Origin: Dryococelus australis
Taxonomy: Eukaryota; Arthropoda; Insecta; Phasmatodea; Phasmatidae
Length of the DNA: 64,000 bases
NCBI GenBank assembly: GCA_029891345.1
Contig: CM057009.1
Span: 309,755,666-309,819,665 of the forward strand
Direction: 5' to 3'
The position numbers were made by a program, and so were the translations under genes. Positions within the stretch are counted from its first letter, which is position 1. The number at the start of each line of letters is the position of its first letter. Below the pieces are notes generated by a model, which was given only the letters and a program-made list of their open reading frames with translations, had not been told where the DNA came from and made no database searches. Positions 36,821 to 61,268 of the stretch are shown in pieces.

Positions 36821-36826
36821 TTTTTC

Positions 36827-37270
36827 AATAGTTATAAAATGGTGGGCTGGAGACAAGGGGACGAGCCAACCACCATCTTGTTTGACATTACTCGGAAAAA
36901 GTCCCATTTTCCCATGAAAATTTCCTGTTCCCCCCCACCCCCCTTGCTCCTGGCAACCATATTGGATCCCAACTTCTTGCTCTGTCAATAATATGATGGG
37001 GTATGCCCAAGTTGCTCCCACCTTTATTTCCTTCCTAGCTAATATGTGCCTGTTAAGCTCTGTCATCCAAAGAATGTAATAGGACTTCCTGTTCATGCAT
37101 TTCGGTGCCAGGGGTGTTCCCCAGGTACTCCTGCCAACGATTTCTTATTAGCAAAGGTGCACCCTCTCATTCCTATACTTCAAATCACCATGCTGAAGAC
37201 CCGGCCTGAAATCCCTACCATAACACCCAGTCAGGGCATTTCCTCAGTGTCATCCCAATGAAAAAAGGGC
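36827..37270 (+). repeat. Left terminal inverted repeat of the Maverick element
   Basis: The outer part 'aaaatggtg', 'acgagccaaccaccatcttg' and 'gacattactcggaaaaa' matches the reverse complement of 61,140-61,250. The inner part 'tttccttcctagct' matches the complement of 'gctaggaaggaa' at ~61,028. 'tgaagacccggcctgaa' plus 'atccct' at 37,193 matches the complement of 'ttcaggccggggcttcatc' at ~60,850. Several small insertions and deletions separate the arms. Confidence 0.8.
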
Positions 37271-37710
37271 CTTTAGATAGCCTCTTTCAGAACCATGCCA
37301 GAACACCCCACAATGAAGACCCTAACTGAAATCCCTACCACAATCCCATGCCAGGGTGTTTTCTCAGTGTCATCCTACAGAGAAAAGCACCTGAGGGGTT
37401 TCCTCCATGCTATCCTGAAGATATCCCATCTTGGCACCATGTGAGAATTCCCCTACCCACCCTACTTCCCCTACAATGATTCTCCAGACTGAATCCCTGC
37501 ATACAGGCCCCCAGCCTGCTTCGATGCCCCACCAGTAGGTTTACTCCGAGCTATCCGACATGCCTAAATCCCCACAATGAAGTCCCTGTCATGATGCCCT
37601 GCCAGGGGTCTTCTCCGAACTATCCCAATGGAAAAAATTGATTCTTCACATACTATTGCAGAGAGCACCTGGGGCGGTTTCCTCCAAGCTATCTCAGCAC
37701 CAAAGCAGAA
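37190..37710. repeat. Subterminal tandem repeats, ~120 bp units
   Basis: Units begin at about 37,193, 37,314, 37,480 and 37,578, each with 'tgaag.cc', 'ctgaa.tccct', 'ccagggtgtttt' or similar, and 'ctcagtgtcatcc' or 'ctccgagctatcc'. The first unit overlaps the inner end of the terminal inverted repeat, so the array grew from it. Confidence 0.75.
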
Positions 37711-37719
37711 TGCCACTCC

Positions 37720-38640
37720 TCACCCAACTTCATCACCCACATCACACACTGGCAGGGAGTATAAAGTCGACTAAGAACAAGTGCTAGCTACCTAGAGGAA
37801 TTGACAAAAAATATAGCCAACTGTGGATGAGGGGTAGGTAGTGAGCTCACATGACCAGTTTGCAGGCCGTGCACTATAGAAAAACACATCCTGGCCCCCG
37901 ACTCACTCATCACGACCCAACACCTCCCCATTTGTGCGCCCTCCGCCTCCTCTTGCAGTTATCCTTGTCTCTGCCACGCACCATCCATTCTATACGCCTC
38001 TGATGCACCCTATGTTTGACACAATCCCTCCCCATCCATTACTACCACCCTTTTTCTCCGAACACACCAGGGCATCGCCATGCCACCATACATGCTGGCC
38101 TGTGCCGACCATGGAGTTGCCACACGACCTGTGACAATGACTAGGGGGACTATAAGTACACATGCATTCCCAGTGCCACACTCAGGCTTACCTTTCACAT
38201 TGCAGTAACATGACATGTGGATAAACTCTAGACTCGGGACCAGCAATTCAATTTGCTGGCAACACCACTAACAATTAACTTTATTCCCATATATGTAATG
38301 CATATAAGGTAAATAAACAACTGCAGTGATGATGTCATTATGTCAGCACATTAAATAGGTGCCTTACAATGTGGAAATGAAAAGGTAACCCAGATAAATA
38401 AAGAGGATGGAATATCAAAGACATATATGACAGCAAAGATAAGGGTCTAGTTGACAGAAAGATGAAGAGTGAAAAGGGGTAGAGCAATGGTTTGAGAAGA
38501 AAATCAGTTATGATATGGGCTACAAGTTACTTCAATGTGATGTGATGCAAATATCATTTACACATTTACAATATCCCACAAGGATAAGCATTGAGTCCCC
38601 CAAGGAATAAAAACTGGCCCCAGGTCGAAGACCCTACAGA
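37720..38640. other. Element interior without a recognised gene
   Basis: C-rich then A-rich sequence with no supported frame. Confidence 0.4.
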
Positions 38641-38739
38641 GACATGAAAACCCCAGGCATTAGAATTGGTAGTGGTGGTGCACAAGTAGTAGTGGTTTGC
38701 ATGAGTGAAGGTGAAGTAGTACATACATCACAAGTACAT

Positions 38740-39480
38740 AAACTACTAGTAACACACTTTGCCAGAGAACTGTACAACTCTTGCAAGAACTACAGCATGT
38801 TACTATTCATCGGCACCATTATCAACAACAGTAGCAACACCCTTGGTAAGAAAAGTTTATAGCTCCTACATGTGCTCCAGAATGCTGTCGGAAAACAAGA
38901 AAACAAACATGCAACAGGGCACTGGTAGTATGCCTGGCGGCATAAGGTGATCTCCTGCATATTATACAGTGTAAGACCAGCCAGCACACTTTGCAAAGAA
39001 ATATATGGCTCCAGTTCGCTGTAACCAAGATTTGGGTTAGTATACCTTACAGAAAGAATTCTGCTCATGCATGTGCTCCAGTAAACTGAAAACAAAGAAC
39101 ACAAAACTGGAGTGGGGACTTAACTGATCATATGCCTGGCAGGATAAGATGGTCTCCTGCAAGTTCTACAGCATATGACCAGCCAGCATACCTGACAAGA
39201 AGAATATTACAACACTTGTATGTTCTCCAGTAAACAGTAAACACTATACCAGGGCACAAAGAATATGGCTGATGCATGTGCTCTAATATACTGAAAAACA
39301 CTCACTTTGCAGACACACACACTGGCAGCACACATGGCAGGAATATTGTACAGCTCTTGCATGAGATACAGCATACCACCAGGCAGCCAGCACACTTGCC
39401 CAGAAATATATGGCTCTTGAATTTTCTCTGGTATGCTGGAGCTGCCAGGATGAATACAGCACATAAGTGGGATCCAGCAT
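38740..39480. repeat. ~200-bp tandem array within the element
   Basis: 'tgcctggcggcataaggtga' plus 'tctcctgca' at ~38,931 recurs as 'tgcctggcaggataagatgg' at ~39,133. 'gaccagccagca.ac' occurs at ~38,972 and ~39,177, and related 'caggcagccagcacacttgc' at ~39,380. 'atgtgctccagtaaactgaa' also recurs. Confidence 0.7.
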
Positions 39481-39660: not shown

Positions 39661-42600
39661 TTACTCATTGTATCCATAAGAGACAATATGGATGGCATTA
39701 TCCAGAATATTATGTTTGTCATCCATCCACAAGAGAGCAAACTGGTTGCTGCATTCAGTGTACATATCGCGGTGGTGCGACATAATGCTGGTGACCAGCA
39801 GCCTCATGAGTTGGTGGATCAAAAAAACATGCTTATAATGATCCATGGCAATGGTGTTATGGTCAATTCTCTTCTAAACCTACTTGACCAACTTCACTAC
39901 TTCGTCCCTACACCTGTAAGCATATAATTTAGCCATCAGCCCAACAAACTCGAACATGTTGTGGCCACCACACTCATTCTTGAATTTTCCAATGACTAGC
40001 ATTGGCAGACAAGTAGCAGGAATGAGTGGGAGGGCAACCACTGGTATCGAATTCGGCAATCAAAGTCGGGTCTGAGGCAGGGTCCTGGTAGAAGTCAGGG
40101 CAGGTAATTTCTTTGATGTAGGAGTTGGTATCCACATACCCACAGTCCCACATCAGAGCCATACTGTGCCAGCATGACATTGTAGTAGAAGTGGTACAAT
40201 AAAGTTTTGGACAGGCAAAATACAGCTAAGCCAGCATAGATTGGTTTGTCGAACACAATGCTCTCATGATCTAATCTGATGAAAGATAGAAAGTCATTGC
40301 AGATTGTGCAACACTATAAAGCTGGATTTAAAATAATCCTATTTGCCTGTAGCTCAGTGTAGACAAGCTCCATCTAATGACATTTGTGATTGTTCTACAT
40401 CAGCTTGCCATACATAGCAGTGCTCATCAGCTTGAAGAAGTCCCATTCGAAGGAGTTTTGGGGATGCCTCTAGCATTTTGCTGTGTTAATTTCAATATAG
40501 GGCTTCAGCTATGCCTTCTGACTTAACTACAGGACACAATGGACAGCCTTCAGCCTGAACCCATAAGTTAATGTTTGCTTGAGGGTGACATAGTGAAAGA
40601 TGTAGCGTGTCTTTCCCTCAAGAATGGCCATTAGCTTGAGTTTTTTGGACCCTGGGGGATACTCATTCACTGGCAGGAATAGAAGGTCCTTGTGCTCACT
40701 GTGGAATGCTGTAGGGTTATCTAAACATACCCATATTATGTAGCTGATACGGTCATTGTATGGCATGGACATCACATCGATATTCATGCTGGTCCATTCG
40801 AAGTTGCCATATGGCAGTGACAGGGTAAATGCCCATCCATATAAGTTGTTGGCATCTACATACTGAAGGTAGGTAGATGGCTGACTAGGATCATGAATGG
40901 AATTGCCTTCCATTCATGCCTTCCTTGTTGTTTGCCACCACATGAGGCATGATGCATGGGGCCACCCCTCCATGGATACCAGCCTCAATGAACATGTAGG
41001 CATCGTAGTCGATGAGGAGGTCCAAATCCACACATGTCTTGCACAGCAGCTCATCGAAGGAGAACCTTTGGGAATTCAGATACCGGACACAGCCCAATCT
41101 ATACAAGGACAAACACAGCCCCCAGAAGTTCTTGAACATGTCACATGATATCAGAACATCTGTCTTGAAATATAGTTCTGCATACACCTCCAGCATTGCA
41201 CAATCAAACATCATCCAGACCATCTGCACATGGCAGTATTGTCCCTTGCTGATGGTGAATCCAGTGAGCCAGTTCGCCAAGGCCTCAATTCCCGGCAGCT
41301 GTGGATTGGCGAGCCTCCCCCACAAGTCGAAATAGTCTTAGGAGAACACTCTCTTGTGAGTCACCAACTCGAGCTGATGGGGCTCGAAGAACGTCGCTGT
41401 GGTCTTGAAGTTGACAGATAGTAGGTTCTTGGCGAACATTGTGAGGCTGGCCAATATACAGCTAAAGGTGCCAATGAACTGAATTGTAAATTTTTGCCAA
41501 ACTTTTGATAAATGTAATTAATTTTTTCTCTATATGAGGAATAATAAAGATCCGCAGTGTAATATTCAAGTTGTTTTATGATAAACCTGGCATTGTACGA
41601 CAAGTTGTGGAATAAGTTTGGCAGGAGCTTGGGATGACATTGTAGCTAGTTACAGTCATATGTGACATCAGAAAAGCATCAGTGAAGTGGTCATGATTAT
41701 TGACCTTCCAGTTGTCTCTGGTGAAGGGGCTGGAACATAGGTAGGAGGTGGTCACTAGTGCATAGCCAGCCCATTCACATGTGGTCAGTTGGTACATCAG
41801 CTTGGACTGGCTATATATGACCTTCAACATATAGCCAATCCTAATAACTTCCACCATGAACATCCCTGCAGTGTTCTTCCTGGTGTACACTTTTGTGTGT
41901 GTGGATACTGGGGGTCTTTGAGGCCTGTATTAAATTGTTGTCCACATTGACTTATATGCCATAGCTATATGGCAGGTGATGCTGAGGCCTATAAGTATAC
42001 AATGTCACCAGGTTTGGTTGGCAAGTCTGCACCAGCACAACATTGCTTCAATGTCAGTGTACATGACTTAAGGTACATTATCGATGTGTTGATCGTTTTG
42101 TAACTTGAGCAAGGTGTCTCACCATTCTTCTGGGGCACCAGCGTGTCTGCATGGACAGGAGCATGGGCATTACAATACCTCCTGTGATGAGCCCACATCT
42201 TAGCACCTCTGAGCCCTGTCACCCACAGCTGGTTATTGTGGTATGCTCACAGACAGTGATTGGAAAACATGATGGCATTTCCATAACCAGTTACCTGCAA
42301 GAATACCAGGTAGGAGAAATCATCTTTATAGCAGAAATGGGAGTTGCCATCTTCTGCCTACACGAGGAAGATACCAAAGTGGGTAGCCTGTTATCCCTTC
42401 AATACCCATATTGGGATGATCTTAATGTCTTCATCATGCATGTAGATGTTGATGCTGACCCCTGGGTTCTTCCTTTCAAACAGGGATATTTTATATAGAG
42501 GGGTGGCAAACTCCAGCAGTTACAGTGGATCTCTTGGTCTTGTATTTTGTATTTTAACACAGTGCTCTTAACCTTGTTGCCTTACTGTGCTTCGGCCTCC

Positions 42601-44005
42601 CAATAAGTTGGGAGAGGACCATGTCCTCTCAATACAAGAAGGCCAAGATTTATGTGACTGGTGGTTAGATCCAAAGCCTAAACTTGGAAGGTCCACACAT
42701 CTTTGCCCACTCTACCACAGAGGTTCTGAGATCCTCGCCCTCAGAAATCATACATGTGGTCTGGCTAACATTCTATCCATACCCCTAGTGTCTTTCCAGG
42801 GCACAACCAGAATAGGTTTCCACTCACTGACCGGTCTGTCAGAGAGTAGGGAACTTCAGTCAGTTAAAGTCAAAATGTACCTCGCAGGCATGGTAGCACT
42901 GGTTGACACATTCAGGATTCGTCCTCTCTACTGGTGTGCCATGATAGCCCCTTTAAAGTACTGCTGGTCCTGGATTTGTGGATTTATAATTGCAGTTTTT
43001 GCTGCAATTTGCACAAGCAGGGTGATGTAGGAGGAGGCTTGCAGTAGGTCGAGTTTATTGACATGCAGCTGGAGCCTTTCTACAGCAGTGAGGGTCCAGT
43101 CATTTCCTTTCCCCATGTACTCACATCCTCCTGACATATCTTGGTGATGGTGGCCATCACATCATCTTTTATGTCTGCTACATCAAAGAGAGGTACAATC
43201 TTCATTTTGAAGGTGTGCTGTTTCATACCTTCTTCATGTGGTTTGGGCTTACCATAAGAGCACTCTAGGAAAATGTTGAATTTCACAGTGCCATAGTCTG
43301 CTATCTCCTTATCCAGTTGGCAGAATATATTGGCATCGATATGTTCGAGCTAGCAACAAATGTCAACTGCATTGCTCGACATATTCTCAGTAATTTAGGT
43401 CCACATTATGCCCCTAAATGCACTCTATGCCTCTAAAAATCCTTATTCATAGCTAGTATCAGTGACAATAATGCCCCTTTGGTAAGGGTGGCCCTCCACA
43501 GAAATCTGGCAGGCTGAAACAAAAGGCAAGAGCTGAGGATTGGTGGATGGTCATGCTTGGAGGATGGTTGGCACAGCTATGCTGGTGCATTTTGCTGGTG
43601 GTGGGGTGGGTCTGGTATATTTAGAGCTGTGAGCATGCAGTTTATCAGCTTGTGTAAACTGCCTTCCACATTTCCTGCACTCCAGTGACTCAGCAGTGAG
43701 ATAAGTGCAAAAACTGCACTTATGCCATCTGTCATCACCAGTGTGGCTGAAACTTTTGTTGGAGAACTTCGAGCAGTTTGAAGCAGCCTGCCTGATCTGA
43801 CCTGTTCATGAGAAATGATTGTCACAAATTGATCGGTGAGGGAAAATGTCTTCCCACACCAAATACACGTGTGCTGATGTGCCTCCCTGAATGGACAGAG
43901 ATTAAAGTTGTGCTCATGGTGCAGACCATTCATGCAAATGTTATACATACATTTGCAAAATCTGCATTGCAGTGTGAGTCGCCATATCAGTGTTGGGATA
44001 GGCAA
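39661..44005 (-). pseudogene. Protein-primed family B DNA polymerase (Maverick type), decayed
   Basis: On the minus strand the coding trace starts with a Cys/His finger region (43,850-44,000: 'LQCRFCKCMYNIC', 'HTCIWCGKTFSLTDQF'). It continues with 'KAFNIF'-like and 'AIINPQIQDQQYFKGAI' N-terminal segments (42,950-43,290), an exonuclease block with 'YFKTDVLISCDMF' (~41,140-41,180), polymerase motif A 'YVDANNLYGWA' (40,829-40,862), motif B as 'FFKLMSTAMYGKLM' (~40,395-40,440) and motif C as 'YVDTNSYIKEI' (~40,110-40,143). Thumb-end segments 'GLMAKLYAYRCRD' (~39,915) and 'LLWMDDKHNILDNA' (~39,690-39,735) follow. The enzyme would copy the element's own DNA from a protein primer. Motif B has Ser for the usual Asn, and motif C has Asn for the second catalytic Asp. 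Many stops and frameshifts split the gene, so it is inactive. Confidence 0.9.
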
Positions 44006-44009
44006 ATGT

Positions 44010-45220
44010 GATTGCTGGAATGGTGCGAATGAAGACGAATATTGTGATGATGGGTGAGATGCTGTGACAAGACAAAAGTGAATGATAGAATGGAAGAATC
44101 CATCTTAGAAGTTAAAATTTACAACTACCATCTTCTCTCTACTGGGTGGGTTGGGGTGGTGGAACTTGCAAAAATCTGCTGTTGCTCGACACTGGATTAT
44201 GAAGGCCAGGAGGAATCCCCTGTGGATCAATGTGTAGACCTAAGAGCACCGCAAATATAGCAAGGTATGGTAAAACCTAGCATATAGTGTCAGCTTGCTC
44301 GAATTGGTTATCTCAACACATTCCCATCACCACTACATTCCATTATTGCTCTGGCCACAGCATATGGCAAGGCTCTTTCCTGTCTCTGGTCCAATAAGAA
44401 TAGGCAAGAGAGGAACAAGTTCTCTGACATATACATGATGACATACTCTGCAAGCAACTCTTCGAATTATATATATATTACATATAGTATATACTTGCTT
44501 TAACAGGTTATCTCAGAGTACTCCTGTTGACACCACATTCCCACTTTGCTACTTCCCCAAGTCGCCTCAGTAGATCGAGCAGCAATGCACTTGCTTACCT
44601 CAGCTGGGAGAAAAAACCAATCCTCTGGCACACACAAAAGTGACTGTGGTTAAATGAGAAGGAAGTGACTATGATAAATATATATGTGTGGAATTATAAT
44701 ATTATATCTGTAGACATTAACTATTGAGTGCAGAGGAAAACCCACCAAATATGTTTATTAGTTAAAAAGAAAAATGTAACTAAAGCCTGAAACAAACCAT
44801 ACCCACATTCCCATGAATATCCTAAACACACAATGTCACAGTATGATGTGCAATATGCTGACAGGTGTGCAACTCTTTTCTAAATGCCATAGCCTTTTAA
44901 AGAAGATGCTTCTGATTGCAAGTACCAATGTATGCACACAGGGAACACTAGCCTTTACAAGGTTGACCAGATGGGGCAAGCATGTATTTGGTTTTGCTTC
45001 AGACCAATTCTGAGTGGAGCATAGCTGCTGACCTGTATCTTGTTTGATTTTTCTCCATGTTACCTACATGACACACTGCATAATTGAGGTAGCTACAGTG
45101 AGCTGTGTAATAGGGAGGAGAACACACTAAACATTCTACCACCCTGAGGTTCACAGCAGAGTAAGCACCCTATGCCATTGATGTAAGAAACACAGTGTGT
45201 ATATGCCACACAGCCTAGAA
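44010..45220. other. Element interior, mostly repeats
   Basis: Two related ~210-bp segments ('gcttgctcgaattggttatc' near 44,293 and 'acttgctttaacaggttatc' near 44,492, each followed by 'tca', a short 'ca/gtac' stretch and '.ccacattcc') suggest an old duplication. No gene. Confidence 0.4.
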
Positions 45221-46010
45221 GTTAACTCGAAATATATTGACACATATCCCACATGACAGGGCTTTCAAAAAAGTGCTCACATTAGCATGCATATCCTATG
45301 GAGTTATTGCTACACACACCATAGAGTCGAACAAGTAGGTTGTTTACAGTAAAATAAGCATCCAGATCGAAATTATATTGACATACGTCCCACATGATAG
45401 GACATTCATAAAAGTGCTCACATTAGCATGAATATCCTATAGAGCTATTGCTACACACACCACAGAGTCGAATGAAATATAGGCCAATGGTGGTAAAGTA
45501 AGCCATGTATGTAATTAACATAGTGTGTATATTCCACAAGTAAATATGTTTATTTACTAGTCTTTTGGATGAGAGGCAGCTTTCAAAAAAGTGTTTACTT
45601 CACCATGATAATCCTATAGGGGTTAGTTCAACCACCAGCAGCAAATGTTGAGCTAGTCCATTCATGGTAACGTAAGCATTTTAAATCCATAGATTGTTGC
45701 ACAGTTATGAAACAAAGTGTGTATATTCCACAGCATTTGGATGTTATATAGTGAAACCAAATTCCAAAAGGTAGTCCTAATGAGATGGCTTTCAAATAGA
45801 GATCATCTCAATGCAAAGTTCCACTGCCACAGAGCTAGGTATAGGTCTTATACTGTACCATGAGCACTTTTAAGCCACATTGACATGTATGCTATACTAA
45901 CAGAGTGTGTATATTTCACGAAATATGGAAGTAACGTATATATATATATTTCATTGATAAGCATTGCATATGAGATGGTGTTCAAAAGGGCTTGCTTTAC
46001 CATGAAAAAC
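45220..46010. repeat. Tandem array, ~140-190 bp period
   Basis: 'aaaagtgctcacattagcat' with 'atcctat.gag.tattgct' occurs at ~45,271 and ~45,409. Further diverged units carry 'gtgtgtatattccac' at ~45,525, ~45,718 and ~45,905, and 'ggctttcaaa' at ~45,575 and ~45,788. Confidence 0.75.
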
Positions 46011-47500: not shown

Positions 47501-47879
47501 AAATATTACAGGACAAACAATCTACACACTATTCAGTCACAATGTGTTTACACACATGTGTATATTACTTTGCTTATCCTACAGCAATGCCATGTTATAT
47601 TACACCTATTTTCCACAATGACATAGTTACTTGAAAAGTTGCCTGTGTCTACACCACAATTTCTCTCCCACAAACTACATTTTCTGTCACCTTATATTAT
47701 ATTTTTTATTTAAAAACATTACCAATGACTCTTTTCACAAACCAACTAAACTGCACGAACACTGTATATATGGGATACTCAGAAATTGCCCTTACAAACT
47801 TATAGGACTTGTAGAGGGGACTGAGTAGACTATCTTTTGAATAGGAACCTACATCCAGAAATGTACTGTTTCCATGCTA

Positions 47880-48650
47880 CAGCCATTTCAAATCAAGTGT
47901 ATCGCTCATCTCCTTCCGTTGAGGGAAATAACAATGTATCGGATGTGCCTGTGTTGGTATGCCACAGGGAAGGCAGTATATTACTTGAGATAATCACCTG
48001 AGACATGATCCATGTGTATCGCACAGCTGAAGATAATGGAAGAGTAGCTCATTAGCTGTATCAAGAGCGTTATCCACAATGTGCGACACCATTGCATGCC
48101 CTATTTGCCACAGTTATGCAAACTCTCTGAGAACAAGGTACATACACTGCCTACATAAAGGACTGTGGTGCTCCAAAGATATGCCACACTCTTGAATTGA
48201 AATAGGCTGTGCTGCATCATGATGAACAGAGCCTATCAGTGAGTACGTGAACAATTGTGTGTGCAATGAGTATTGCTCCCAGCATAGTCTGTGAGGTTCT
48301 GCATGAGCAACTACATCTTTACCACCTTCAAAATTTACAGTCTTTGGGTCCAGCAGATTTTGCACCATGCATTGACCTCTGCATATTGTTACCATATCGA
48401 GTTCTGTTCACAGATGAATATAAATTAACCAGGGACAGTGTTCTCGATTCTCGAAACAGCTATGTTTGGGCAGACAAAAACCCTAATACTGCTCATGTCC
48501 AGGGATTCCAGCACAGATTTTCTATCAATGTTTGGGCAGATATACTGGATGGTCATGTGTTAAATACCTTATTTTAAATGGTTGTAGCACAGAAATGGTA
48601 TGTTTCCAGACAGGGGGACTCTATTCAAAAGATCATCTACTGAGTCCCCT
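47880..48650 (+). pseudogene. Nested DDE-type transposase (Tc1/mariner/IS630-like), decayed
   Basis: A plus-strand frame open at 48,257-48,577 contains 'LQSLGPADFA', 'VLFTDEYKLTRDSV', 'SRNSYVWADKNPN' and 'FSINVWADILDGHVLN'. This is the central block of a DDE-3 transposase family widespread in arthropod genomes, and the Asp in FTDE is the expected first catalytic residue of this block. The upstream helix-turn-helix part (47,880-48,250) is readable only in pieces with stops, and the C-terminal catalytic Glu region is not recognised. It sits inside the Maverick element without relation to its genes, so it inserted later. Confidence 0.75.
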
Positions 48651-48899
48651 CTACAAATCCTTGGGGTTTGTAAGGAGAGTTTCCAATCAGCTTGTATACA
48701 GTTATTGCAAAGTCTATTTAGACTTGTGTGTGAGTACACATATTTCATACGTGAAAAAAATATATGCCTCTCTTAGAGATGCAAAGATAAGTAACTCACT
48801 ATTCACTGTAAAATTTAATTAAGCTTGTGGGCGAGTACACACACATTAAAATTTATGCTTCTCACAGTATCACTAATGAAGATTCCAAGAGTGAGTGGA

Positions 48900-50560: not shown

Positions 50561-51209
50561 TTATATTGCGATGTTACATGGTATCTGGCCTCAGATAAAA
50601 AACTGGACATGCTACAATACTGCATGGTGTCGGATAGAGGATTAGGCATTCCTCTTAATTTTCACTCACCCAGTGTTGGAGTCCAATACATCATTCTACT
50701 TGCTCTGGCCATCCAGGAAGTTTGAAGTGAACACATAGGTAGCCAACTGTAATGCCATCATACTTGCTCATGTCCACTGTAGCACATGCATTGTTTCACA
50801 TTACCAATGTGTTCGATGCCAGTGTAAACTATTTGCACAGTTGCCTTGTTCAGCATCGCCATGTTGTCTGTAATGAGCTGTACATATCAGGATGGCAGCC
50901 ATACCTGGAATGAGCCATCCAGCAGACATGACACACACTTCCCATATGATGTTGCAGCCTGTCAGATATCTTCTGCGACATACCTCTTGTAGAGAGTCAC
51001 GTCCATCGGTGGCTTGCACTGAGCATTACTGTTCAATTTCACAAGCAACCCATCCATTCTGCTATAGTGCACAGTACAGTGGTCAACCTTAATCATCGGA
51101 CCTACATTTTTATTATTTCTCTCCTATCACCACCATTGTGGCTCTTTGAAAACTTAGTATTGCATAAATCATGATGCAGGTCCTTCATATAATGTGCATG
51201 ACCAACCGG

Positions 51210-51610
51210 ATAATTACAAGTGATCATACCCTGTCTTCATAACCTGCACTCATGTACCAAGCCTTCAATGTTCGTAATTATGAGCAATCATACTTTGTCT
51301 CCAGCATGCACTACACTGCTCATAATTAGAAGCAGTCATACTCTGTCATTAAGACTAGCCTGAACACATTTGTGCACCAAGCCTTCATTGCTCTGGGCAG
51401 TCATACTCTGTCTCCAGCCTCCACTTGTGTACCACACCTTCAATGTGTGTAATTACATGCACTGTGCCCTTCACCACTGAGGTTCAGGGCACAACCCCAT
51501 AGTAGTAGTGCTTTCATGCATAGACATTACCTGCCTAACCTGCAGTTGTGGCACTCGTGGTTCGTCGTGTACCAAAGCACAGTCATACTCTGTCTGTACA
51601 TCACATATGT
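51210..51610. repeat. ~70-bp minisatellite ('catactctgtctccagcct')
   Basis: Four to five diverged units with 'gcagtcatactctgtctcca' and 'tgtaccaagccttcaatg', sometimes with an intervening 'taattatgagcaatcat'. Confidence 0.75.
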
Positions 51611-51949
51611 TTGTGCTGCTTCAATGAGTACTCAGCCATTGTTTCTGTTCTGAACCAGTGACAAAGTTGATGCCAGCCTCTTCCAACAGAGGCGAGTACT
51701 TGTATTTTATCATACTCATTGTTCCCATCATCCAAATTAATACAGTAATAGTGTTTCTCAAGCCACATATTTGTCACCATACTTTTCCTGTCGAGCACAT
51801 ACAATGGGAAGGGTGACAGGAAAGTGCTTGTGACTATACTACTGTCCACATGTGCTATTCACATATGTTTAGTTATGAAACCACACAGTGACATACAACC
51901 CTAGACATTCACGAACATTGTGATGACCGGGTAGTGAATGAGCTATAGG

Positions 51950-53150
51950 TACCCTTTTGGCCATTATTTTAACTATACAATTGCATATATTACATGTCAC
52001 AAGTGGATCATGGATTATTAGGGCATATGCTTAAGTGTTAGCCAAGAAATTCCCAGTGGTAGTCAATTCTGCAATTGGCAACTGCTGTCTGTATTCTATT
52101 GTCCTGTTTACTTATGTCGAAAACCAGTAGGGGAGCTGTATTTATGAATTTGGCAGGTGCTAGTATTGGAGATTAAGTTTGACCAAAATATGCTCTATGA
52201 AAGGTTGCGTTTATTTGGTATAGCAACATGTAGATACTGTTTGCAAAATCAATGTTTAGGTCTCCATATAAATAACACTCTGAGTTGAGATGAACTTTCA
52301 TGTTCCCTATATTTGCATGATCGAATTGCGAATGGTATGTGCCAGAGATGTTTTGTTTGCCAGTCTGAAAGTCAACAATTATATACTGCAGCTTCTTGCT
52401 TGTAAAACTCATTCCAATATTCCAATTTAGGCTCATGACTTGCAAGACACTCGGATGTTTCTAAACTCCAGGATTGGAACACCATGTCGGCATTCCTGTA
52501 TTTCTCTGCATATAAAAAAATTCCACTCATTCCAACACTCTCACCTGCATGTGTGGTAATAGCCATTCGAGAGATTGGAATGCTAGCATTGTGATTTCCA
52601 GTGCAGTTGCATCATCCATAAAGGCATTTTCTCGCATGTTGGCCATGAGAATAATTAGCTCCTTCTAGAAATTAATAATTATGTGAATGTAGTCCATGGC
52701 AAAATATATCAGTATGGCCAGCAGAATACTAACTTCGAATTTTCCATTCAGATAGACTGGGAGCGTATGGCCCTCTTCGATCACCCAGCTGGCCATTTTA
52801 GCCACAGGAAGTTGGTTGCACATTAGCGAGAGGTAATTTTAAATGGTTACTGTGATTCCCACATCCCGAGTAGCATTTACTTCTCTCCCACTTAGATTGT
52901 ATGCGATTTGCCTTATCATGTGTAATATTCCATTTCTAATGATTCTAGTTGTCACTGATACTGTGTTTCCTGCCTTCATAATTGTACCGCAAAACCACAA
53001 ATAAGAATTACATTTTACGGTGTAGATGTCTTGGTTCTGGACCAGGATCCAAACCTAGGACAAGGATACATATGGATCTGGCAGATACTGTATGTACAAG
53101 TGGATTTTCGCCTCCAAGATCGAGTCTTCAAACCCTGTCTCCTCTGTCAC
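51950..53150 (-). pseudogene. Major capsid protein (double jelly-roll), Maverick type, decayed
   Basis: The minus strand reads with several in-frame stops through 'NQDIYTVKCNSYLWF' (~53,000-53,040), 'VIEEGHTLPVYLNGKFEVS' (~52,735-52,795), 'YIHIIINF' (~52,665-52,690), 'MKVHLNSECYLYGDLNIDFA' (~52,245-52,310) and 'PLLVFDISKQDNRIQTA' (~52,075-52,130). These segments, in this order, are characteristic of the double jelly-roll capsid protein of Maverick/Polinton elements, which forms the shell of the predicted particle. A frame change occurs near 52,440-52,560 and stops lie at about 52,840, 52,665 and 52,515. The C-terminus fades after ~51,960, making it shorter than intact relatives. It lies directly downstream of the probable minor capsid gene. 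Confidence 0.8.
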
Positions 53151-53289
53151 ATTTAAAATTTCCACATCCATATCTGTTGACTGACAGTCCCAATCTATAC
53201 AGGAAACTAACATTTGCAGATGTTAGCATGCTGGACACTCGCCTTGTACTGACTTCTAGTTTGGTATGGTAAGTGATTTTTATTACTTT

Positions 53290-53860
53290 CGACTGCTTAA
53301 ATTTCAGTCCCATCTTTGTGCAGATGCTGGCAAACGGTAATTTTCTTGCAACAGAAATTAATCAAATGATGGTCTTGGTCTACTCTGGAGATGAGCACTT
53401 CTTGCATGCTCTCTGTGACAATTAGCATGTAAATAGGAGTCTTTGGAATGCACACTATTTTAAACCCCGGTGGCACCATTGTGGAGAATTTGTGGAGCAT
53501 TTGGATAGGCTGGCCATTAAGGTATGAGCTGGTTACCAAATTAAAATTTATTCTTATCGTGATCACTGGAAAAATATTTACTGGGAGGTCGATTGTTGCA
53601 GTTTATTTGCGTTGTATTTCATGTTCAAGAACCCTATCATGGCGGCCAGCATGTCGTTCTGCATGAAATATATCTGGTTGTTACATTACATCTTGCTGTG
53701 TAGAATATTGGAGTTCCCTTGCAGTATCAACATCACATCCAGTCCCAGTTCGCACTTAAATACTAGCCTACATCCTCGATTTCATAAGAACTTGTGGGTA
53801 TACACATCTCGCCTCTCTTGCCATTCTCCTTGATGTACCAGAACGTGCAATTGTGTTGTG
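53290..53860 (-). pseudogene. Probable minor capsid (penton-like) protein, decayed
   Basis: A minus-strand frame is open at 53,297-53,566. It encodes 'NGQPIQMLHKFSTMVPPGF' and ends 'DQDHHLINFCCKKITVCQHL' followed by a short tail. The ending has the look of the last strands of the single jelly-roll minor capsid protein of Maverick elements. Upstream, readable pieces ('DMLAAMIGFLNMKYNANK', ~53,600-53,655) lie in another frame. The position just before the capsid gene on the same strand supports the call. Sequence support alone is weak. Confidence 0.4.
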
Positions 53861-53869
53861 CCAGTTTTA

Positions 53870-54850
53870 GGCACGTTCCTTGTTTTAATTATGTTTTGTA
53901 CTTTACCTAAAGGATTTGTGTGAGGTATTTATATTTTTTTGTACCTTATTGTGAATTTTTTGAGTGAAGTAATTTTTTTTGTGGTAAAGTGCTAATAATC
54001 TGTTTGCCTTCCTCAATATAGTATTTATTTGAATATTGTTATTTACAGTCGTCATTAAACAGATAATTGGTTCAGTTGTTAAAAGGATCCATAAGAAAGT
54101 CATATTTAATTGTGATTATAACTTTTTTGTGTCTACAGGACATATAAAGATTGATCAGATAACTAACCTTTTTAGTGCTTCTCTGTGAAGTATTTGGTAT
54201 CATAGTTCAAATATTCGCCACTAAAGTACTCTTTATATAGTAAAACAAAAAATTTTAAGGGCAAAGGAAAGTGAGTATTTTGTGTTAATTAAAGTTGCCT
54301 AAAATTCTGAGATGATATGATAAATATTTTGTGATAAATATCATAACATGTAAATGTATAAATTATATTTTGACTTCATAAAACTATACCATAGATTGTT
54401 CTATGTACGAAGTAATTCGAATATCGTCACATCGATGTACAGGCTTTTGGAGAGTCTTTCTTGTCGCTATTCTTTGGTGCTGCATAAGGCCTCTTTCTTC
54501 GCCATCTTCAACATGTAATTAAAAACTTCGCCATTTTTAACTCTCCTTATTGATTCGACTGTTTCTCAAGATTATGTAAATCATCGAAGTTACAGCTGGT
54601 GAGTAAATTGTTATTTTTTGTCATTGTCGGCAATATTGTATTTGATGGTGGCGAACATTATTTATGTCCCTTTTTAATGATTTTAGCTATAGCTCGACAC
54701 AATCAGCATTCCAGACATGACTGATTGCTACATGTAGTGTGTCCTCATTAAGTATGTGAAAGGAATAACAGATATAAGCGTCCACAGTTCCTTTCTCGAG
54801 GCTGCTGTTCTGTCATATAGTTATAATAAGTTCTCGTGCCTCTCAAGTTT
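53870..54850. promoter_or_regulatory. AT-rich gap between divergent gene blocks of the element
   Basis: About 1 kb with no coding trace separates the leftward capsid block from the rightward block. By position it would be the place for promoters of both, but no specific box can be defended. Confidence 0.25.
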
Positions 54851-55396
54851 GTTTTCAGTATGTGTGGGCCCTTAAATTACCGAAGGCTATCACAGTAACC
54901 AGTCCTATTGCTAAGCTTCTTATATGTGGTTCAATGTATACCCAGACCTCCACTGGAATCCAGGTTTATTATTCCACTCTCCACTCGCCATGGTCAGTGC
55001 AGGAGGTGGTCATGCATGAATACACCCCTGAATTTATGTATTTTTTAGTTTCCGAGTGAACTTTTGTATAACAAAGTTTGTGAGTGGGAGGTCTGGCAGG
55101 GCCCTTAAGACAACATGTTTCTTCTATCATGCTTTCTTCTTTCCACTGTCCTTTGCTTCCTCCTGCCTTCCCCCTAGCAATAGGGATGCAAGTACAGGCA
55201 TTGCCTGTTTTTATCTCCTCTAGCGAACAATTCCATTTTTCGATTATGCCAAATAGCTTCCTAGATTGTTGATGTTCTCCTTTTCCCAAGTTGATGGCAC
55301 AAGTGATCCCACTAGCTCACCAATTTAACTTCATAATAGTCTGGATGCTGGGAATATGAAAGGCAATATCCCTCCACACGTATCTGATGCATCTTT

Positions 55397-55669
55397 TCAA
55401 CGAGGTTTCCTCTGTGACTTCCTAGATTTCCTTCCAAACTGCAAACACATTCTATATTTAAGTGTATCTCGCATTATCTTGGGAACACCCCAAGCAGCTA
55501 GTTGTTCGCTGAGTTTAGAAGTAGGCGATAAACCTACCATTCGAACTTTGTCTGCAAGTATACTATCAGCAATGTGTCTATCCTGCAACCAACTACTTGT
55601 TGCATAGTCAATGTTGTACTCCTTGCACACCTCATCCAAGAAATTAGTTGGGATATCACCTTTTTTCAA
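55397..55669 (-). other. Unassigned open frame in the element
   Basis: A 90-codon minus-strand frame ('NFLDEVCKEYNIDYATSSWL', 'SKLSEQLAAWGVPKIMRDT', ending in a basic 'GRKSRKSQRKPR' tail) looks more natural than the overlapping plus frame. The composition is that of a soluble helical, basic-tailed protein. No family recognised. The adenovirus-type protease expected in this kind of element was not found here or elsewhere. Confidence 0.25.
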
Positions 55670-55839
55670 TCTCTGTGCTAGTACTTGGCCTGCATAATTT
55701 ATATCCTGGAATGTGTGCTTCGAATGGGAGGTTGTTGATCAGTGTATTCACCAGTTCACATCCCCTCTTGACCTTGCTTCCATGATAAATTACATCATAC
55801 TAACACTACTTGTTAGGTACATCTACTTTATAATTTCTC

Positions 55840-56640
55840 TTGGCCGACCAAATCTTGAGCATGGACCTGCTGCTTATGGTTTACCATTCATGCCTAAGTG
55901 CAATGGAGAAAATGCCCCAGGCCACCACACTACCAGTTCGCACCACTGCCAATGATGAATATACTACTCACTTAATAGAATCACAGGAAGCTACTGCCGA
56001 AAACCATCCACAGTACTATATAATTGTGGGTCCAAGCAACTGAGGGAAGGCATGTGGTATTTTCAGCCTTCTGGAAGAGCCCACTGGACTTTGCTTTGAG
56101 AATGCGTACCTCTACTCAAATTCCCTCCAACAACCAAAGTACCTATGCTTAGCAAATATTCTACAGGCAGTGGATGGGCTTCGATATTTTCTATTTAGCA
56201 ACAATGAAGCAGTTGTGCTGCCGAGTGAAGCTTTGCCAAACTCTCTTCGTGTTCGATGATGTCTCATGTGAAAAACAGAGCAAAATAAAACATTATTTCA
56301 GTATGGGCCGACATGTAGCTGTGGACTCAATTTACTTATGCCAAACATATTATTATTATTTTATGTCTAAGCAACTTCTGTGTGACCATGCTAATTTCCT
56401 TGTTCTGTTTCGTATGGATGACTTAAATTTACACCATGTGTAGTCTGATAATGTGCATACTGATATGACTTTTGATCATTTTGAAAACAAATGTTTGTGT
56501 TGCTGGTGGGAACTGCAAGGTTTTCTCATCATACCCAAGGATTTTCCACCTCATGAAGGACATTGCCCCATGGTTTTGATCAGGTTCTTGCATAGCAGCC
56601 TTATGTGTGCACCATACAATTGTATCACTCCTACTAATGA
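55840..56640 (+). pseudogene. FtsK/HerA-type DNA packaging ATPase, decayed
   Basis: The first frame (from 55,840) ends at 'YYIIVGPSN', followed by a TGA at 56,041-56,043 and then Gly-Lys, so the stop sits inside the Walker A loop. The next part ('FENAYLYSNSLQQPKY', 'SNNEAVVLPSEALPNSL') continues to ~56,255. A second frame carries Walker B 'LFVFDDVS' (~56,242-56,265), 'HYFSMGRHVAVDSIYLCQTY' and 'LCDHANFLVLFRMDDLNLHHV', all signature blocks of the Maverick packaging ATPase that pumps DNA into the capsid. A stop at ~56,441 and further decay follow. It lies at the head of the rightward gene block. Confidence 0.9.
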
Positions 56641-56869
56641 TGATAAATGCAGTTTTCGTGGGAAATGAGCCAAGCATATTGGAGGCCTAAGAATGACAGG
56701 GATGCTGCCAATGTCCCCGTTGCCTGCATCATCTCTTCCGAGGCTTTGCAACTGCTGGTCGCACTGCAGACCTCATCTACTAACACTGAGACACATCTTC
56801 ACTTACTAATGTCTGATGTGTCTTCGCTTGTGAATGTGTAGCTGAAGCTCGCCAGTGTGGGTGAGTGAA

Positions 56870-57991
56870 TAGCCAGCAAAGTGACTGCTGAATTACAAAC
56901 ACTGACCAACAATGTGCGCAAACTGACTGCTTCAGGCAAGAAGCTGGCAGTGGTGGAGAGCAACCTCTACGATATAAATGAGCTGACTACCAACATGGAT
57001 ATGTGGCTTATCAAGTTGATCGAGATGGTGGCCAGTCAAACTGGTTTTGTGTCTAGCAATGCACTCAAGGTCATGGAAGGATGACTATTAACCGACACAA
57101 ATTCACTGTCTGCCAAGATGGAAGCCTAGAACCACTCATTGACTTCTAATGCGAACATGTTAACCACTCTAGTGGCAAGCTTGCGGCCCTGGAGCAGAAA
57201 CTCGATGTAGTAGGCACACAAGTTGCAGACAGTTGCCTTACCAACCTGACCTCAAAATTAGACAGGAAATTTGATGTCCGGACTGAAAGCACAAATGCTC
57301 TGGCCACTTTAAATACAAAGCTAGCCTACCTGGAATCGAACATCACTGCTGTTGGTGCATTGTCCGGCCAAATGAATGCTCAGATTCAAACATTAACTAC
57401 TGATGTGCATACTCTGTGCACCTTAGGCAGTACACTTAAGACTATGGAGAAGAAAGTCGATGACTTGGGTGATTGTGTTGACAACAGAGAGCTTACAGCT
57501 CTGGCTACGAATTTGAAGGATCTTTTGCTCATTGCAAATGAAGGTGCAAGCAAACTGGCCACTCTGAGTATGCAGCTAGCAAATGTATCCGGCATGGCCT
57601 CGTACTTTGATGGGGGCACGTGGACAATGAAATTATTACAGCCCTGTCTGTGAAGCTGGACAGACACCTTAATACTTCTGCGGAGATTGTAAGCAAGCCG
57701 ACAGCTGTAAGTATGCAGCTAGGGTCTGTGGTCAACCTGGAAACGAAATTCTGCACTATCATGGCCGGAATGTCTAATGGCAATCTTAATAGCATTGCAG
57801 AATTGCTGTCATCCTATCTCAGCTCCTTGGGTGTGTGGCTTATACTATGGAAGATGTTGTATGCCACACAATCACACATATTTCCGACATTCATGCCAAT
57901 GATAAGTGGACACATTGTAAACATGTTAGAGCACATTGGCAAGTCGGGAGAAACTTTTAAGAAGTTGATCGAGCGGAGGGCCACTTACTAA
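56870..57991 (+). pseudogene. Long coiled-coil protein of the element, decayed
   Basis: Three overlapping frames (56,881-57,084; ~57,180-57,653; 57,620-57,991) together encode about 370 residues with heptad-like spacing of Leu/Ile/Val: 'LQTLTNNVRKLTASGKKL', 'LTTDVHTLCTLGSTLKTMEK', 'LATLSMQLANVSGMA'. The composition is Thr/Asn/Ser/Leu-rich with almost no Cys, suggesting a long trimeric or dimeric fibrous protein. Two frameshifts and several stops break it. It stands between the packaging ATPase and the integrase genes. No family recognised; a fibre- or scaffold-like structural protein is an inference from shape and place only. Confidence 0.5.
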
Positions 57992-58031
57992 TTATATGTA
58001 TTATGTGCATTCGGCATTCTTTTTCAGTGCA

Positions 58032-58394
58032 ATGTCTCCCACCACCGAATATTTGCACCTTGTTATCAGCATTCGCAATAGATATCTGCTCAACAAGCAG
58101 GTGCATATGGAGTGTAATGCTGTATTGTCGGATGTCTTCCAGCTAATAATGTCTTGGCTCGACCAACAGCAGCCTATTCCCCCTGCTGCTGCTCTGAAGA
58201 CTGAACTGAACCTCGGGCCTAAGAGGAAATGCAAGAAAAAGTTATCTAATGTGCGCTCAGTGACTGTTCAAAACTATCTCTCTTTGTATGCACCAAGCTT
58301 TAACAATTCGACATATGGTGTATATAAGCACAATAAGAAGTTGTTATTAAAAAAAAAACAAATTTCCTTTCTGCCAATGATGTTATACAAATAG
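58032..58394 (+). CDS. Small basic protein of the element, unassigned
   Basis: An uninterrupted 120-codon frame starting 'MSPTTEYLHLVISIRNRYL', with 'VFQLIMSWLDQQQPIPPAAA' in the middle, a basic cluster 'GPKRKCKKKL' resembling a nuclear-localisation or DNA-binding patch, and a Lys-rich end. It sits 40 bp after the coiled-coil gene and about 100 bp before the integrase frame, in the same direction. Compared with its neighbours it is strikingly intact, although the 3' part passes through an a-run (58,349-58,360) where a frameshift could hide. Its function is unknown. Confidence 0.45.
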   Translation: MSPTTEYLHLVISIRNRYLLNKQVHMECNAVLSDVFQLIMSWLDQQQPIPPAAALKTELNLGPKRKCKKKLSNVRSVTVQNYLSLYAPSFNNSTYGVYKHNKKLLLKKKQISFLPMMLYK

Positions 58395-58498
58395 GCAATT
58401 AAGTAAAGTGCATCTCTCCTGGCTTATATGAGCTGCTATTTATATACGAGTCAGGGGATTATTTCCGTGCCATGCTTCGTCAGTACAGGTGATTTATT

Positions 58499-59765
58499 AT
58501 GCTCACAAGCACACATGTGACAGGGAACAATGCCACAAGCAATAGTTATAAGGACAAGTCACATCCAAAATTCGACATTATCGCTGATCTGTTCCTAGGT
58601 GTGTCAAGTAGTTCGGATTTGACTTCGAAGCTTGTAGGTGGCAGTCACCTTTAATATGTCTACTGGGACGACAGCAACAAAGTAGTGGTACATCTATGGC
58701 TGCTCATTGCATCCCAGCAAGCTGTAAATACATCTCAGATGAATGAAATTGTGAATACTTGGAGGAGCTGTGGGAGGCTGGCTAAATCCAGTGAAGATGA
58801 CCAAAATTACCTGACCTCAACTATGTCAAGAGCACAGATCGCCGCTGAGCTGCATCGCCCTGCCTGCAGGTATTATCCCCGAAGCAAGGTACTCCTGTTT
58901 GGACTGCAAGACCTGTATCAAGCTCATTTAGTCGAAGTGATTCCTTATGCCCGCACTAATAAGGGCTACAGGTACATTTTAATGGTTATAAATTGCTTCT
59001 ATAAATGTGGATTGTCCATTACTGTGCACAGAAAGTGTGGCATGGATGTGGCTACTGCTATGAAATGGGTTTTGGCTGAGGGGGTGCACCTAAGAATCTG
59101 CAAACTGACTATTCTAAAGAATTCTACAACCCTGCCTTCCATTAACTTATGGCTGTGAATAAAATTAACCCCTACAGTTCATTTGGATATGTCAAAGCTT
59201 CTATAGTGGTACAATTTAGTCGACCGCTCAACCTGTCATGTGTAAAGAGCTTTGAGTACAGGGCAGTTACAAGTGGCTGAACCAGCTCCTGTGCTTCTTT
59301 GCTGAGAAAAAATGTGTACGAGCATAGAACTATTGGAATGAGCCCTGTTGATGTTATTGCTGAAAACTCCTTTTTGTTACATCGCAGTTTACAACAATGA
59401 CAAGAAGTTCGATTCCCGCAGACCAAAAGCTAAATTTGGAGATTTTGTGAGAATCTGACAAATTAAAGGGACTTTTTGATAACCCTTATTTTTCATCTTG
59501 GAGCGTGGACGTATTTCATGTGGCCAAGGTGTTGGATTATGTGCCTCTCACTTATGCCCTCATAGATATGGCTGACCAACAAATTATTGAATCCTTCTAT
59601 AAATTTGAGATTTTGACTACAAAGTACCCACATGACCATTTGGTCGAGAAAATTTTCCAAGGGCAAGGGGATAAAGTTCTTTTGAAATGGTTCGGATTTC
59701 CAGCTCGCTTCAATCAGTAGGTGTCAAAATCATTGCTTACAACTGTGTAAGTGCAAGACCTGTGT
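58499..59765 (+). pseudogene. Retroviral-type (DDE) integrase with chromodomain, Maverick type, decayed
   Basis: One frame from 58,499 runs to 59,158 with a single TAA at 58,652-58,654. It contains 'AELHRPACRYYPRSKVLLFG', then 'LYQAHLVEVIPYAR' and 'NKGYRYILMVINCFYKCG', the core of the Maverick integrase that joins element ends to target DNA. The second catalytic block 'LQTDYSKEFYN' (~59,096-59,130) is in another frame. After a broken third block ('ASIVVQFSRPL', ~59,200-59,230) the C-terminus resumes at 59,505-59,720 with 'YALIDMADQQIIESFYKFEI' and a chromodomain-like 'VEKIFQGQGDKVLLKWFGFP'. The first catalytic Asp is replaced by His (QAHLV) and the expected catalytic Glu by Val. The gene is inactive. 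Confidence 0.9.
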
Positions 59766-59979
59766 ATAAGTACCAGCTGTTGTAATTTTTCTGTAATAAA
59801 TTCACTCTTCACAATGTTGTGTGTCTTGTAAACTTACTCACTCTGTGTGCTTCCCTCACCTTGTACCAACTGTCAGTGACAAGTAGCAGCCACATTTCAA
59901 TTGTTTGGGTCTCACACTGGTCTGTGGGACCAAATGTTAAATAGGGAGGTTCCTTGTCTTGGCTTAATTGCATCTGGAC

Positions 59980-60460
59980 TGCCTAGGACATTTTCAATGG
60001 CTTTATCCACATTACACTATCTCTCTTCCTGAATGCTTGGGAAACAACCTCCTCATTATTACTAGTTGCTTCGGGCGATGAGGGAGGTTGGAGGCCTTGA
60101 TCTTTCTTGGCTAACAGGCAATTAGGACAGTTCATTATTTCTGGAAGCTCGGTGGCCTTGAGAGGGAGGGGGGAGTAGGCAGCACTCATTCATTCTCGAT
60201 CCTCCTGACAATCCATGAAAGTGGTAGGACCTCCGACCTTTTCTTGTCGGTGGGAACCTCCATATGATCTGGTGGACAAGTGGGGGAGGGAGAAGAGATC
60301 ATCGAGATCCTCCATGCTGATAGCACACAACTTTATATCTGTATGTAAATCTGACACAGGCATTTTTTTGGCCGCCCACTGCAGTGCCCTGCTAATTGTG
60401 GAGGCTCTGTATATGAGCGATAGAGTATGTTCCATGTGTAGCCATACTGGCACCTCTCAT
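59980..60460 (-). other. Unassigned minus-strand frames near the right end
   Basis: Two adjacent frames (60,190-60,453 and 59,983-60,189) could be one broken small gene opposite to the integrase ('CAISMEDLDDLFSLPHLSTR', 'ELPEIMNCPNCLLAKKDQGL'). A Cys-x2-Cys pair is present. No family recognised. Confidence 0.2.
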
Positions 60461-60774
60461 ACATCTCGTTCGTGTTTAACTGTTCATTAATTTTCATATA
60501 TACTATTTATTTCCACTTTATTTATACATGCAATTGTTTTAACTACTACTATAGTAATGTTGTGTGTATATCGAGGAAGGGGATACACGCACATTCTGAT
60601 GTTGTGTGCATAGGCAACAGGATGGCTCGGAGGAAACCCACATGACAAAGCGTAACTCAACAGCCCCCGACTCCACACACAAGGAGCCATAGCCGTGTTG
60701 TAGAGTCATTGGTGAGCATTGTGTGTGCGGAGGGATGCATGCACTGCTGGTGTGTGTGCAGGCCACTAAATATT

Positions 60775-61262
60775 TTGGCGCGATACCTCGGTGAAAACCC
60801 CCTGGTGGGAATTCTTGGCAGGGATTTTTGGTGGGGGCTTTATCGCAGGGTTCAGGCCGGGGCTTCATCGCAGGGCTCCGGGAGATAGGATTGGAAGGAC
60901 ACACTTTTGCTAGGAAGGAATCGCGTGTGGGAGCATCCGGAGAAACCCCCCTGTTCTGGAATGCACAAGCAGGAAGTCACTAGTGCATTCTTCCCTTGGA
61001 ATGACAGAGCATGACATGCGCACTTTTGCTAGGAAGGAATCGGGCAAGGAGCACCTGGAAACACCCCAGAATAGGAATGCAATATAAGGATGTTCACAAC
61101 CAAGATGGGCACCACAGGCGTGAGGGGAAAGGAAAATTTTCGCTTGAAAAATGGGGAAAACTTGACATTTTTCCGAGTGATGTCACACAAGATGGTGGTT
61201 AGCTCGTTCCCTCATCGCCACCCCCAAGCCCCTGCACTGGAATCACCATTTTCTTTAATACT
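60775..61262 (-). repeat. Right terminal inverted repeat of the Maverick element
   Basis: It reads, in reverse complement, the same landmarks as 36,827-37,270. A ~117-bp tandem duplication lies inside it: 'cttttgctaggaaggaatcg' occurs at 60,906 and 61,023, whereas the left arm has one copy. The outermost bases are 'ctttaatact'. Confidence 0.8.
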
Positions 61263-61268
61263 TTTTTC

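What the first reader, a model, noticed from the sequence alone, without database searches (positions are those of the whole stretch)
36821..61268. A complete-ended ~24.4-kb Maverick/Polinton fossil
Inverted ends, a candidate target duplication, and a full virus-like gene set (polymerase, two capsid proteins, packaging ATPase, integrase) are all visible in one piece. The two gene blocks point outward from a ~1-kb AT-rich gap. Elements of this kind link transposons with large DNA viruses, and copies with both ends and all modules identifiable are useful for dating and lineage placement.
Basis: partly seen in the sequence, partly recalled or inferred. Interest (0 to 1): 0.88.

Follow-up and report, generated by a model that had tools for sequence, protein, structure and literature searches.

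The report
Ancient virus-like transposon in stick insect
A dead, heavily mutated virus-like jumping element (a Maverick/Polinton) sits complete from end to end in what appears to be a stick-insect chromosome; it is a well-preserved example of a known and, in stick insects, common kind.

Summary
The finding holds up. The element spans 36827-61262 (24,436 bp). Its ~400-bp terminal inverted repeats align far above chance; an exact TTTTTC duplication flanks ends that each lie one mismatch from the published (AGT)2 motif. Searched in pieces, it carries a Maverick-type DNA polymerase, a double-jelly-roll capsid, a poxvirus-A32-like ATPase remnant and a retroviral-type integrase. A second capsid-like piece is conserved in a sister copy, with third-codon-position bias; its name is recalled. 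Stops and frameshifts break it. Contig sizes match the Dryococelus australis assembly. Corrections: opposite-strand blocks diverge near 55.8 kb, not at the AT-rich gap, which is probably a later insertion; the middle ~7 kb showed no core gene in five pieces tested and holds a nested transposon. The element is CpG-depleted (0.30 vs mean 0.74 in sampled bins), as is the sister copy: past methylation is possible, unproven. New member of a known kind.

The parts
36821..36826 (.). left copy of the 6-bp target-site duplication (TTTTTC)
   Evidence: exact match to 61263-61268, adjacent to the end motif
36827..37229 (+). left terminal inverted repeat; begins AATAGT, one mismatch from (AGT)2
   Evidence: K2P 0.292 over 384 ungapped sites
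39679..43119 (-). broken protein-primed type-B DNA polymerase (PolB); three frames and several stops; a conserved acidic position of motif C is replaced (motif recalled)
   Evidence: tblastn with the L001 relative against the window: 6e-79 (753-aa frame) and 8e-9, 7e-4 (335-aa frame); piece 40530-40913 matches P0001/P0002, E=4e-17 and 2e-14 in 5.8 billion sequences
43554..43805 (-). C2H2 zinc-finger-like piece upstream of PolB
   Evidence: PF13465 E=3.9e-4, 21.1 bits against a cut-off of 40: weak
47761..48702 (.). nested ~0.94-kb inverted-repeat transposon remnant, with a transposase-like piece at 48251-48574 (+)
   Evidence: inverted arms; the transposase likeness is recalled, Pfam gave nothing
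51604..51858 (-). possible capsid maturation protease remnant, downstream of the major capsid gene
   Evidence: position and recalled likeness only; Pfam gave no protease
52041..53054 (-). broken double-jelly-roll major capsid protein; matched pieces lie in one frame, cut by stops
   Evidence: four colinear pieces on PF21738 positions 5-36, 38-90, 166-253, 258-295 of 316; E=0.017, 0.017, 1.3e-18, 3.4e-4; positions 91-165 not matched
53300..53602 (-). conserved coding remnant, probably the minor (penton-type) capsid protein
   Evidence: 65% protein identity over 78 residues to the sister copy in L024; mismatches concentrate in third codon positions, p=0.003; the name is recalled
53858..54692 (.). 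AT-rich (29.6% GC) stretch, not CpG-depleted (0.78), with only 110 unmatched bases in its place in the sister copy: probable later insertion
55400..55738 (-). conserved small ORF, possibly a lipase-like virion protein
   Evidence: 42 and 62% protein identity to the sister copy; no codon-position signal, no convincing Pfam match; the likeness is recalled
56153..56440 (+). remnant of the genome-packaging ATPase (poxvirus A32-like)
   Evidence: PF04665 E=7.6e-5, 22.7 bits against a cut-off of 22.8, positions 97-140 of 242
56869..57988 (+). coiled-coil protein remnant between ATPase and integrase
   Evidence: 3.5-residue hydrophobic periodicity in 56869-57081 and 57150-57650 (2 and 4 of 1000 shuffles reach it), not in 57611-57988; sister-copy protein identity 61, 54 and 45% for the longest segment of each
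58631..59355 (+). broken retroviral-type integrase; frameshift near 59089 and stops; two of three catalytic acidic positions replaced (positions recalled)
   Evidence: E=1e-20 to P0003, which bears PF00665; tblastn 8e-34 against the window
59451..59717 (+). conserved coding remnant, probably the integrase C-terminus
   Evidence: 56% protein identity over 50 residues to the sister copy; third-codon-position excess p=0.006; no Pfam match; the name is recalled
60832..61262 (-). right terminal inverted repeat; begins AGTATT on the minus strand, one mismatch from (AGT)2
61263..61268 (.). right copy of the target-site duplication (TTTTTC)

Best explanation
This is a dead Maverick/Polinton. An ancestral copy was integrated as a linear double-stranded DNA by its own integrase, duplicating 6 bp of host DNA (ends and duplication are shown; the mechanism is inferred from the family). 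In life it would have copied itself with its protein-primed polymerase and, if virion-forming, packed its DNA with the ATPase into double-jelly-roll capsids (inferred). After insertion it decayed by point mutation, frameshifts and nested insertions (shown), probably with CpG loss through methylation (inferred). Nothing in the sequence suggests that it is active now.
For: Inverted repeats far above chance; exact 6-bp duplication beside (AGT)2-like ends, 0 of 5000 control pairs (motif from PMC8097293). PolB, major capsid, ATPase and integrase all lie between the ends. A related copy on the same contig repeats the right-hand order: penton-like piece, 55.4-kb piece, coiled coil, integrase. Length 24,436 bp and ~400-bp repeats fall within the published ranges of intact vertebrate elements, 12.7-24.6 kb and 46-1447 bp.
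Against: The ATPase score is just under Pfam's cut-off and covers a small part of the profile. No tool named a protease or minor capsid gene. The 6-bp duplication is low-complexity. The related copy shows no match to the ATPase stretch, to the element's DNA left of 53352 or to the end repeats, and the polymerase beside it matches only at protein level, so that locus may be rearranged or of a different family.
Confidence: 0.95

Rival explanations
1. An endogenised adintovirus: the remains of a free-living animal virus of the Adintoviridae that integrated, rather than a transposon lineage. The two share the same gene set and overlap in the literature, so this is a question of placement inside the same kind.
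For: Capsid, polymerase and integrase are all present; a coiled-coil gene fits the 'Cah' class, and a lipase-like piece would fit the 'Macc' class, both described for this wider virus group (passages of PMC11071296).
Against: No phylogeny was possible with the references at hand; a related copy on the same contig and the abundance of Mavericks in other stick insects (passage of PMC5691397) fit a multiplying genomic lineage at least as well.
Confidence: 0.35
2. A composite: separate fragments of more than one Maverick brought together, so that the two ends do not belong to one insertion.
For: The related locus looks rearranged; about 7 kb of the middle showed no core gene in the five pieces tested and holds nested repeats.
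Against: The matching target duplication beside matching ends indicates a single insertion event.
Confidence: 0.04

Closest known systems
Vertebrate Mavericks (Barreat and Katzourakis 2021, PMC8097293; abstract, first of two parts of Results, and one found passage seen)
   Same: Size, repeat length, 6-bp duplication, (AGT)2 ends, PolB, ATPase, major capsid, integrase; 96% of the 3,511 vertebrate loci are likewise degraded.
   Different: Vertebrate modules generally point towards the centre, those of the cane toad away from each other. Here PolB and capsid share the minus strand while ATPase and integrase lie on the plus strand, pointing outward.
Stick-insect Mavericks (one passage of PMC5691397 seen)
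   Same: Same inferred host order and repeat class; [quoted passage not shown]
   Different: That passage gives repeat-class counts; no element anatomy was seen there.
Adintoviridae and related viruses (passages of PMC11071296 seen)
   Same: Capsid, PolB and integrase genes; coiled-coil surface proteins and lipase-like core proteins are reported in the wider group.
   Different: Described there from assembled sequence datasets; this is a broken genomic copy, and kinship was not tested.
Methylated endogenous adintoviruses of Amoebidium (passages of PMC11244446 seen)
   Same: Virus-like elements set apart by a methylation signature in the host genome.
   Different: There methylation was measured; here only CpG loss is seen.

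Membership tests
Maverick/Polinton | long terminal inverted repeats | tested here: met
   score 179 against control maxima of 42 and 44
Maverick/Polinton | 6-bp target-site duplication and (AGT)2-type ends | tested here: met
   each end has one mismatch to the motif
Maverick/Polinton | protein-primed type-B DNA polymerase | tested here: met
   homology shown; the labelling of the relatives as Maverick-type PolB is recalled, since Pfam named neither the pieces nor P0001/P0002
Maverick/Polinton | retroviral-type integrase | tested here: met
   (PF00665-bearing relatives); the window's own pieces gave no Pfam match
Maverick/Polinton | double-jelly-roll major capsid protein | tested here: met
   (PF21738, four colinear pieces, one of them above the cut-off)
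Maverick/Polinton | A32-like packaging ATPase | tested here: met
   E=7.6e-5, 22.7 bits, 0.1 bit below the curated cut-off
Maverick/Polinton | minor capsid protein | tested here: inconclusive
   conserved coding remnant; no named match; single-sequence structure model unusable, pLDDT 42.7
Maverick/Polinton | capsid maturation protease | tested here: inconclusive
   no protease match at 51604-51858
Maverick/Polinton | intact open reading frames (active element) | tested here: not met
   stops and frameshifts in PolB and integrase; capsid pieces cut by stops
Vertebrate Maverick subgroup | polB+ATPase module and integrase+capsid module pointing inward | tested here: not met
   PolB and capsid on the minus strand, ATPase and integrase on the plus strand
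Adintoviridae | phylogenetic placement of polymerase and capsid | not testable with these tools
   too few references could be fetched (all 3 protein searches used)

The most novel reading that the evidence does not exclude
In this insect, Maverick copies were singled out for DNA methylation after insertion and decayed by CpG deamination, leaving CpG-poor islands in a genome that is otherwise only patchily depleted; that would be virus-element silencing by methylation in an insect.
Probability: 0.25. Interest if true: 0.55.

Novelty: new member of a known kind. Interest (0 to 1): 0.3.

Why it matters
A copy with both ends, its target duplication and most modules identifiable is a usable anchor for dating and placing insect Mavericks, once orthologous sites in other stick insects are checked. 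It does not change what is known about the kind. The CpG contrast is the one part that could open a question: whether insects methylate virus-like elements.

Tried and rejected
Pfam saw 32 of the 119 stop-free pieces of 65 aa or more in the element, plus nine shorter ones; the rest were not scanned. Weak matches below cut-off (such as Cys_rich_VLP, N1_PEX6, RDD, Tad8) were taken as chance; the coiled-coil piece 57150-57650 drew eight sub-threshold families, one of them described as a coiled-coil region. No relatives came from viral contigs: five protein scans and two DNA patterns. The homologue search with the capsid piece found no candidate. PDB sequence searches with integrase, capsid and polymerase pieces gave 0, 0 and one chance match. 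Phage-collection tblastn found nothing. PF21738 in the genome behind L001 found nothing, and none of the 14 controls rang, so that is not evidence of absence. Structure models of 55400-55738 (pLDDT 48.6) and 53300-53602 (42.7) were too poor to use. Rfam and tRNA scans of the window were empty. Ten ORFs outside the element gave one sub-threshold Pfam match (NUDIX_4). Codon-position test: of 14 stretches one had too few sites, and 2 of the other 13 had p<0.05; the 55.4-kb piece and the three coiled-coil pieces showed no signal. Heptad test: 2 of 4 window pieces and 3 of 6 sister-copy segments stood out. CpG: the boundary is not sharp (bins at 34-37 kb 0.54, 0.42, 0.38; 62-63 kb 0.35), and CpG sites in the two end repeats were kept as often as changed to TpG/CpA (4 and 4). 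Rejected: that the AT-rich gap is the original boundary between gene blocks.
Full report
Ends. Local alignment of the two proposed ends gives 285 identities, 74 mismatches and 61 gap positions between 36844-37229 and the reverse complement of 60832-61224. The score is 179, against a maximum of 42 in 200 simple shuffles and 44 in 200 other places of the window. Beyond the local alignment, the left end reads AATAGT and the right end, on its own strand, AGTATT. Each is one mismatch from the (AGT)2 end motif published for vertebrate Mavericks (PMC8097293, first of two parts of Results). TTTTTC stands immediately outside both. In 5000 random pairs of blocks from the window, 2687 had some 6-mer match, but 0 had one with both ends within one mismatch of the motif. 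The motif was compared after the ends had been seen, and a second published motif, (AG)3, was also tried and did not fit. The element is therefore 36827-61262, 24,436 bp.

Genes. Pieces were searched one by one; Pfam saw 32 of the 119 stop-free pieces of 65 aa or more, chosen by eye, and nine shorter ones. A minus-strand piece at 40530-40913 matches two database proteins at E=4e-17 and 2e-14. With those, two contigs were found; L001 carries a relative with two long open frames (335 and 753 aa), and these align along 43119-39679 of the window in three frames and through several stops, E=6e-79 for the larger. Four colinear minus-strand pieces, in one frame and cut by stops, match the double-jelly-roll model PF21738 at positions 5-36, 38-90, 166-253 and 258-295 of 316 (only the third, E=1.3e-18, is strong alone). 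A plus-strand piece at 56153-56440 matches the poxvirus A32 ATPase model at 22.7 bits against a cut-off of 22.8, over positions 97-140 of 242. The integrase at 58631-59355 matches an Aphidius protein with an rve domain at E=1e-20; it carries a frameshift near 59089, stops, and replacements at two of the three positions that I recall as catalytic. No tool named a minor capsid protein, a protease, a lipase-like protein or the integrase C-terminus; those labels are recalled leads.

Related copy. One of the 20 stretches taken at round coordinates from the same genome, L017 on the same contig, happened to hold a related element: 53622-59749 of the window aligns to it in five blocks at 66-78% DNA identity, and 53352-53607 to its neighbour L024 at 72%. 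Among the other stretches searched only a weak integrase match in L005 (E=2e-4) and short repeat matches in L008 and L009 appeared. The coiled-coil stretch, the 55.4-kb piece and the penton-like piece are all shared, so they belong to the family. Mismatches concentrate in third codon positions in the penton-like piece (p=0.003), in 59451-59717 (p=0.006) and in the pooled integrase pieces (p=1.9e-4; two of the three overlap, so up to 67 window positions were counted twice). So the copies probably diverged while those genes were still under selection. Eleven of 13 stretches tested alone had p>0.05, including the other two integrase pieces (0.12, 0.13). L017 has only 110 unmatched bases in place of window 53858-54692, the AT-rich gap, which also has host-like CpG content (0.78): probably a later insertion in the window, though a deletion in L017 is not excluded. 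It also lacks a match to 55776-56822, where the ATPase lies; neither L017 nor L024 matches the window's element left of 53352 or its end repeats; and a polymerase about 2 kb beyond its integrase matches at protein level only.

Age and decay. The two end repeats differ by K2P 0.292 over 384 ungapped sites (48 transitions, 44 transversions). With a recalled insect rate of 2-3e-9 per site per year this would be tens of millions of years; the rate was not measured here and the ends may have differed at insertion. A nested ~0.94-kb inverted-repeat remnant lies at 47761-48702. CpG observed/expected is 0.30 for the element. The 20 sampled 10-kb stretches range from 0.36 to 1.10, and their 200 one-kb bins average 0.74, of which 10.5% are at or below 0.33, against 16 of 24 element bins; one of the 20 is the stretch with the related copy. 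That copy is also low (0.27 and 0.37, against 0.55-0.68 around it), and the nested element is low too (0.25), which favours loss after insertion. Against this: the boundaries are not sharp, the end repeats show as many kept as changed CpG sites (4 and 4), some other stretches are nearly as low (0.36, 0.41), and the comparison was chosen after seeing the data.

Host. Eleven contig lengths were seen; the five largest are 403.5, 376.2, 373.0, 326.6 and 262.277 Mb. With the total of 3,415,067,245 bases they fit the abstract of the Dryococelus australis assembly (PMC10268593: 3.42 Gb, N50 262.27 Mb, L50 5, 17 main scaffolds; start of abstract in the listing), if the unseen contigs are smaller. Its Scaffold_4 is the X chromosome (passages); if scaffolds are numbered by size, the window's contig (326.6 Mb) is the X. 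The host name is thus an inference. Mavericks are listed as present in all arthropods investigated in PMC6327564 (passages) and as very abundant in two other stick insects (passage of PMC5691397). Searches for 'Phasmatodea' with 'Maverick' (5 papers) and 'stick insect' with 'polinton' (1 paper) listed no paper whose title is about this element; of these six only PMC5691397 was opened, for one passage. The term search of PMC10268593 found no occurrence of 'maverick' or 'polinton' in its main text.

Verdict. A real, complete-ended Maverick/Polinton fossil, ordinary for its inferred host group, with a possible but unproven methylation signature.

Noticed in passing
window 36827-61262; L017 1-4529; L024 9731-10000: Both Maverick copies examined are CpG-depleted relative to most sampled genome; the nested transposon inside the window's copy is depleted too.
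   Followed up: partly
L017 6719-7479: A Maverick-like polymerase lies about 2 kb beyond the related copy's integrase, on the same strand and similar to the window's only at protein level: a rearrangement or a second, different Maverick.
   Followed up: no
window 56869-57988: A coiled-coil remnant between ATPase and integrase, conserved in the related copy; it may be a fibre- or surface-type capsid protein.
   Followed up: partly
window 45183-45300: A short repeat inside the element also occurs in two sampled stretches on other contigs (L008, L009; 77% and 69%), so a dispersed host repeat may be nested there.
   Followed up: no
window 31719-34288: A cluster of direct and inverted repeats (arms 32595-33089 and 33790-34288, 77% alike): another repeat-rich stretch left of the element.
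   Followed up: no
L001, L002: A bacterial MAG (Candidatus Gastranaerophilales, PL23b_bin.96) in the genome collection holds contigs with long open frames of a Maverick-like polymerase, probably contamination.
   Followed up: partly
window 48901-51000: A stretch of up to 52% GC with several overlapping ORFs of 100-150 aa on both strands and no Pfam match for the two pieces tested; possible accessory genes of the element.
   Followed up: no
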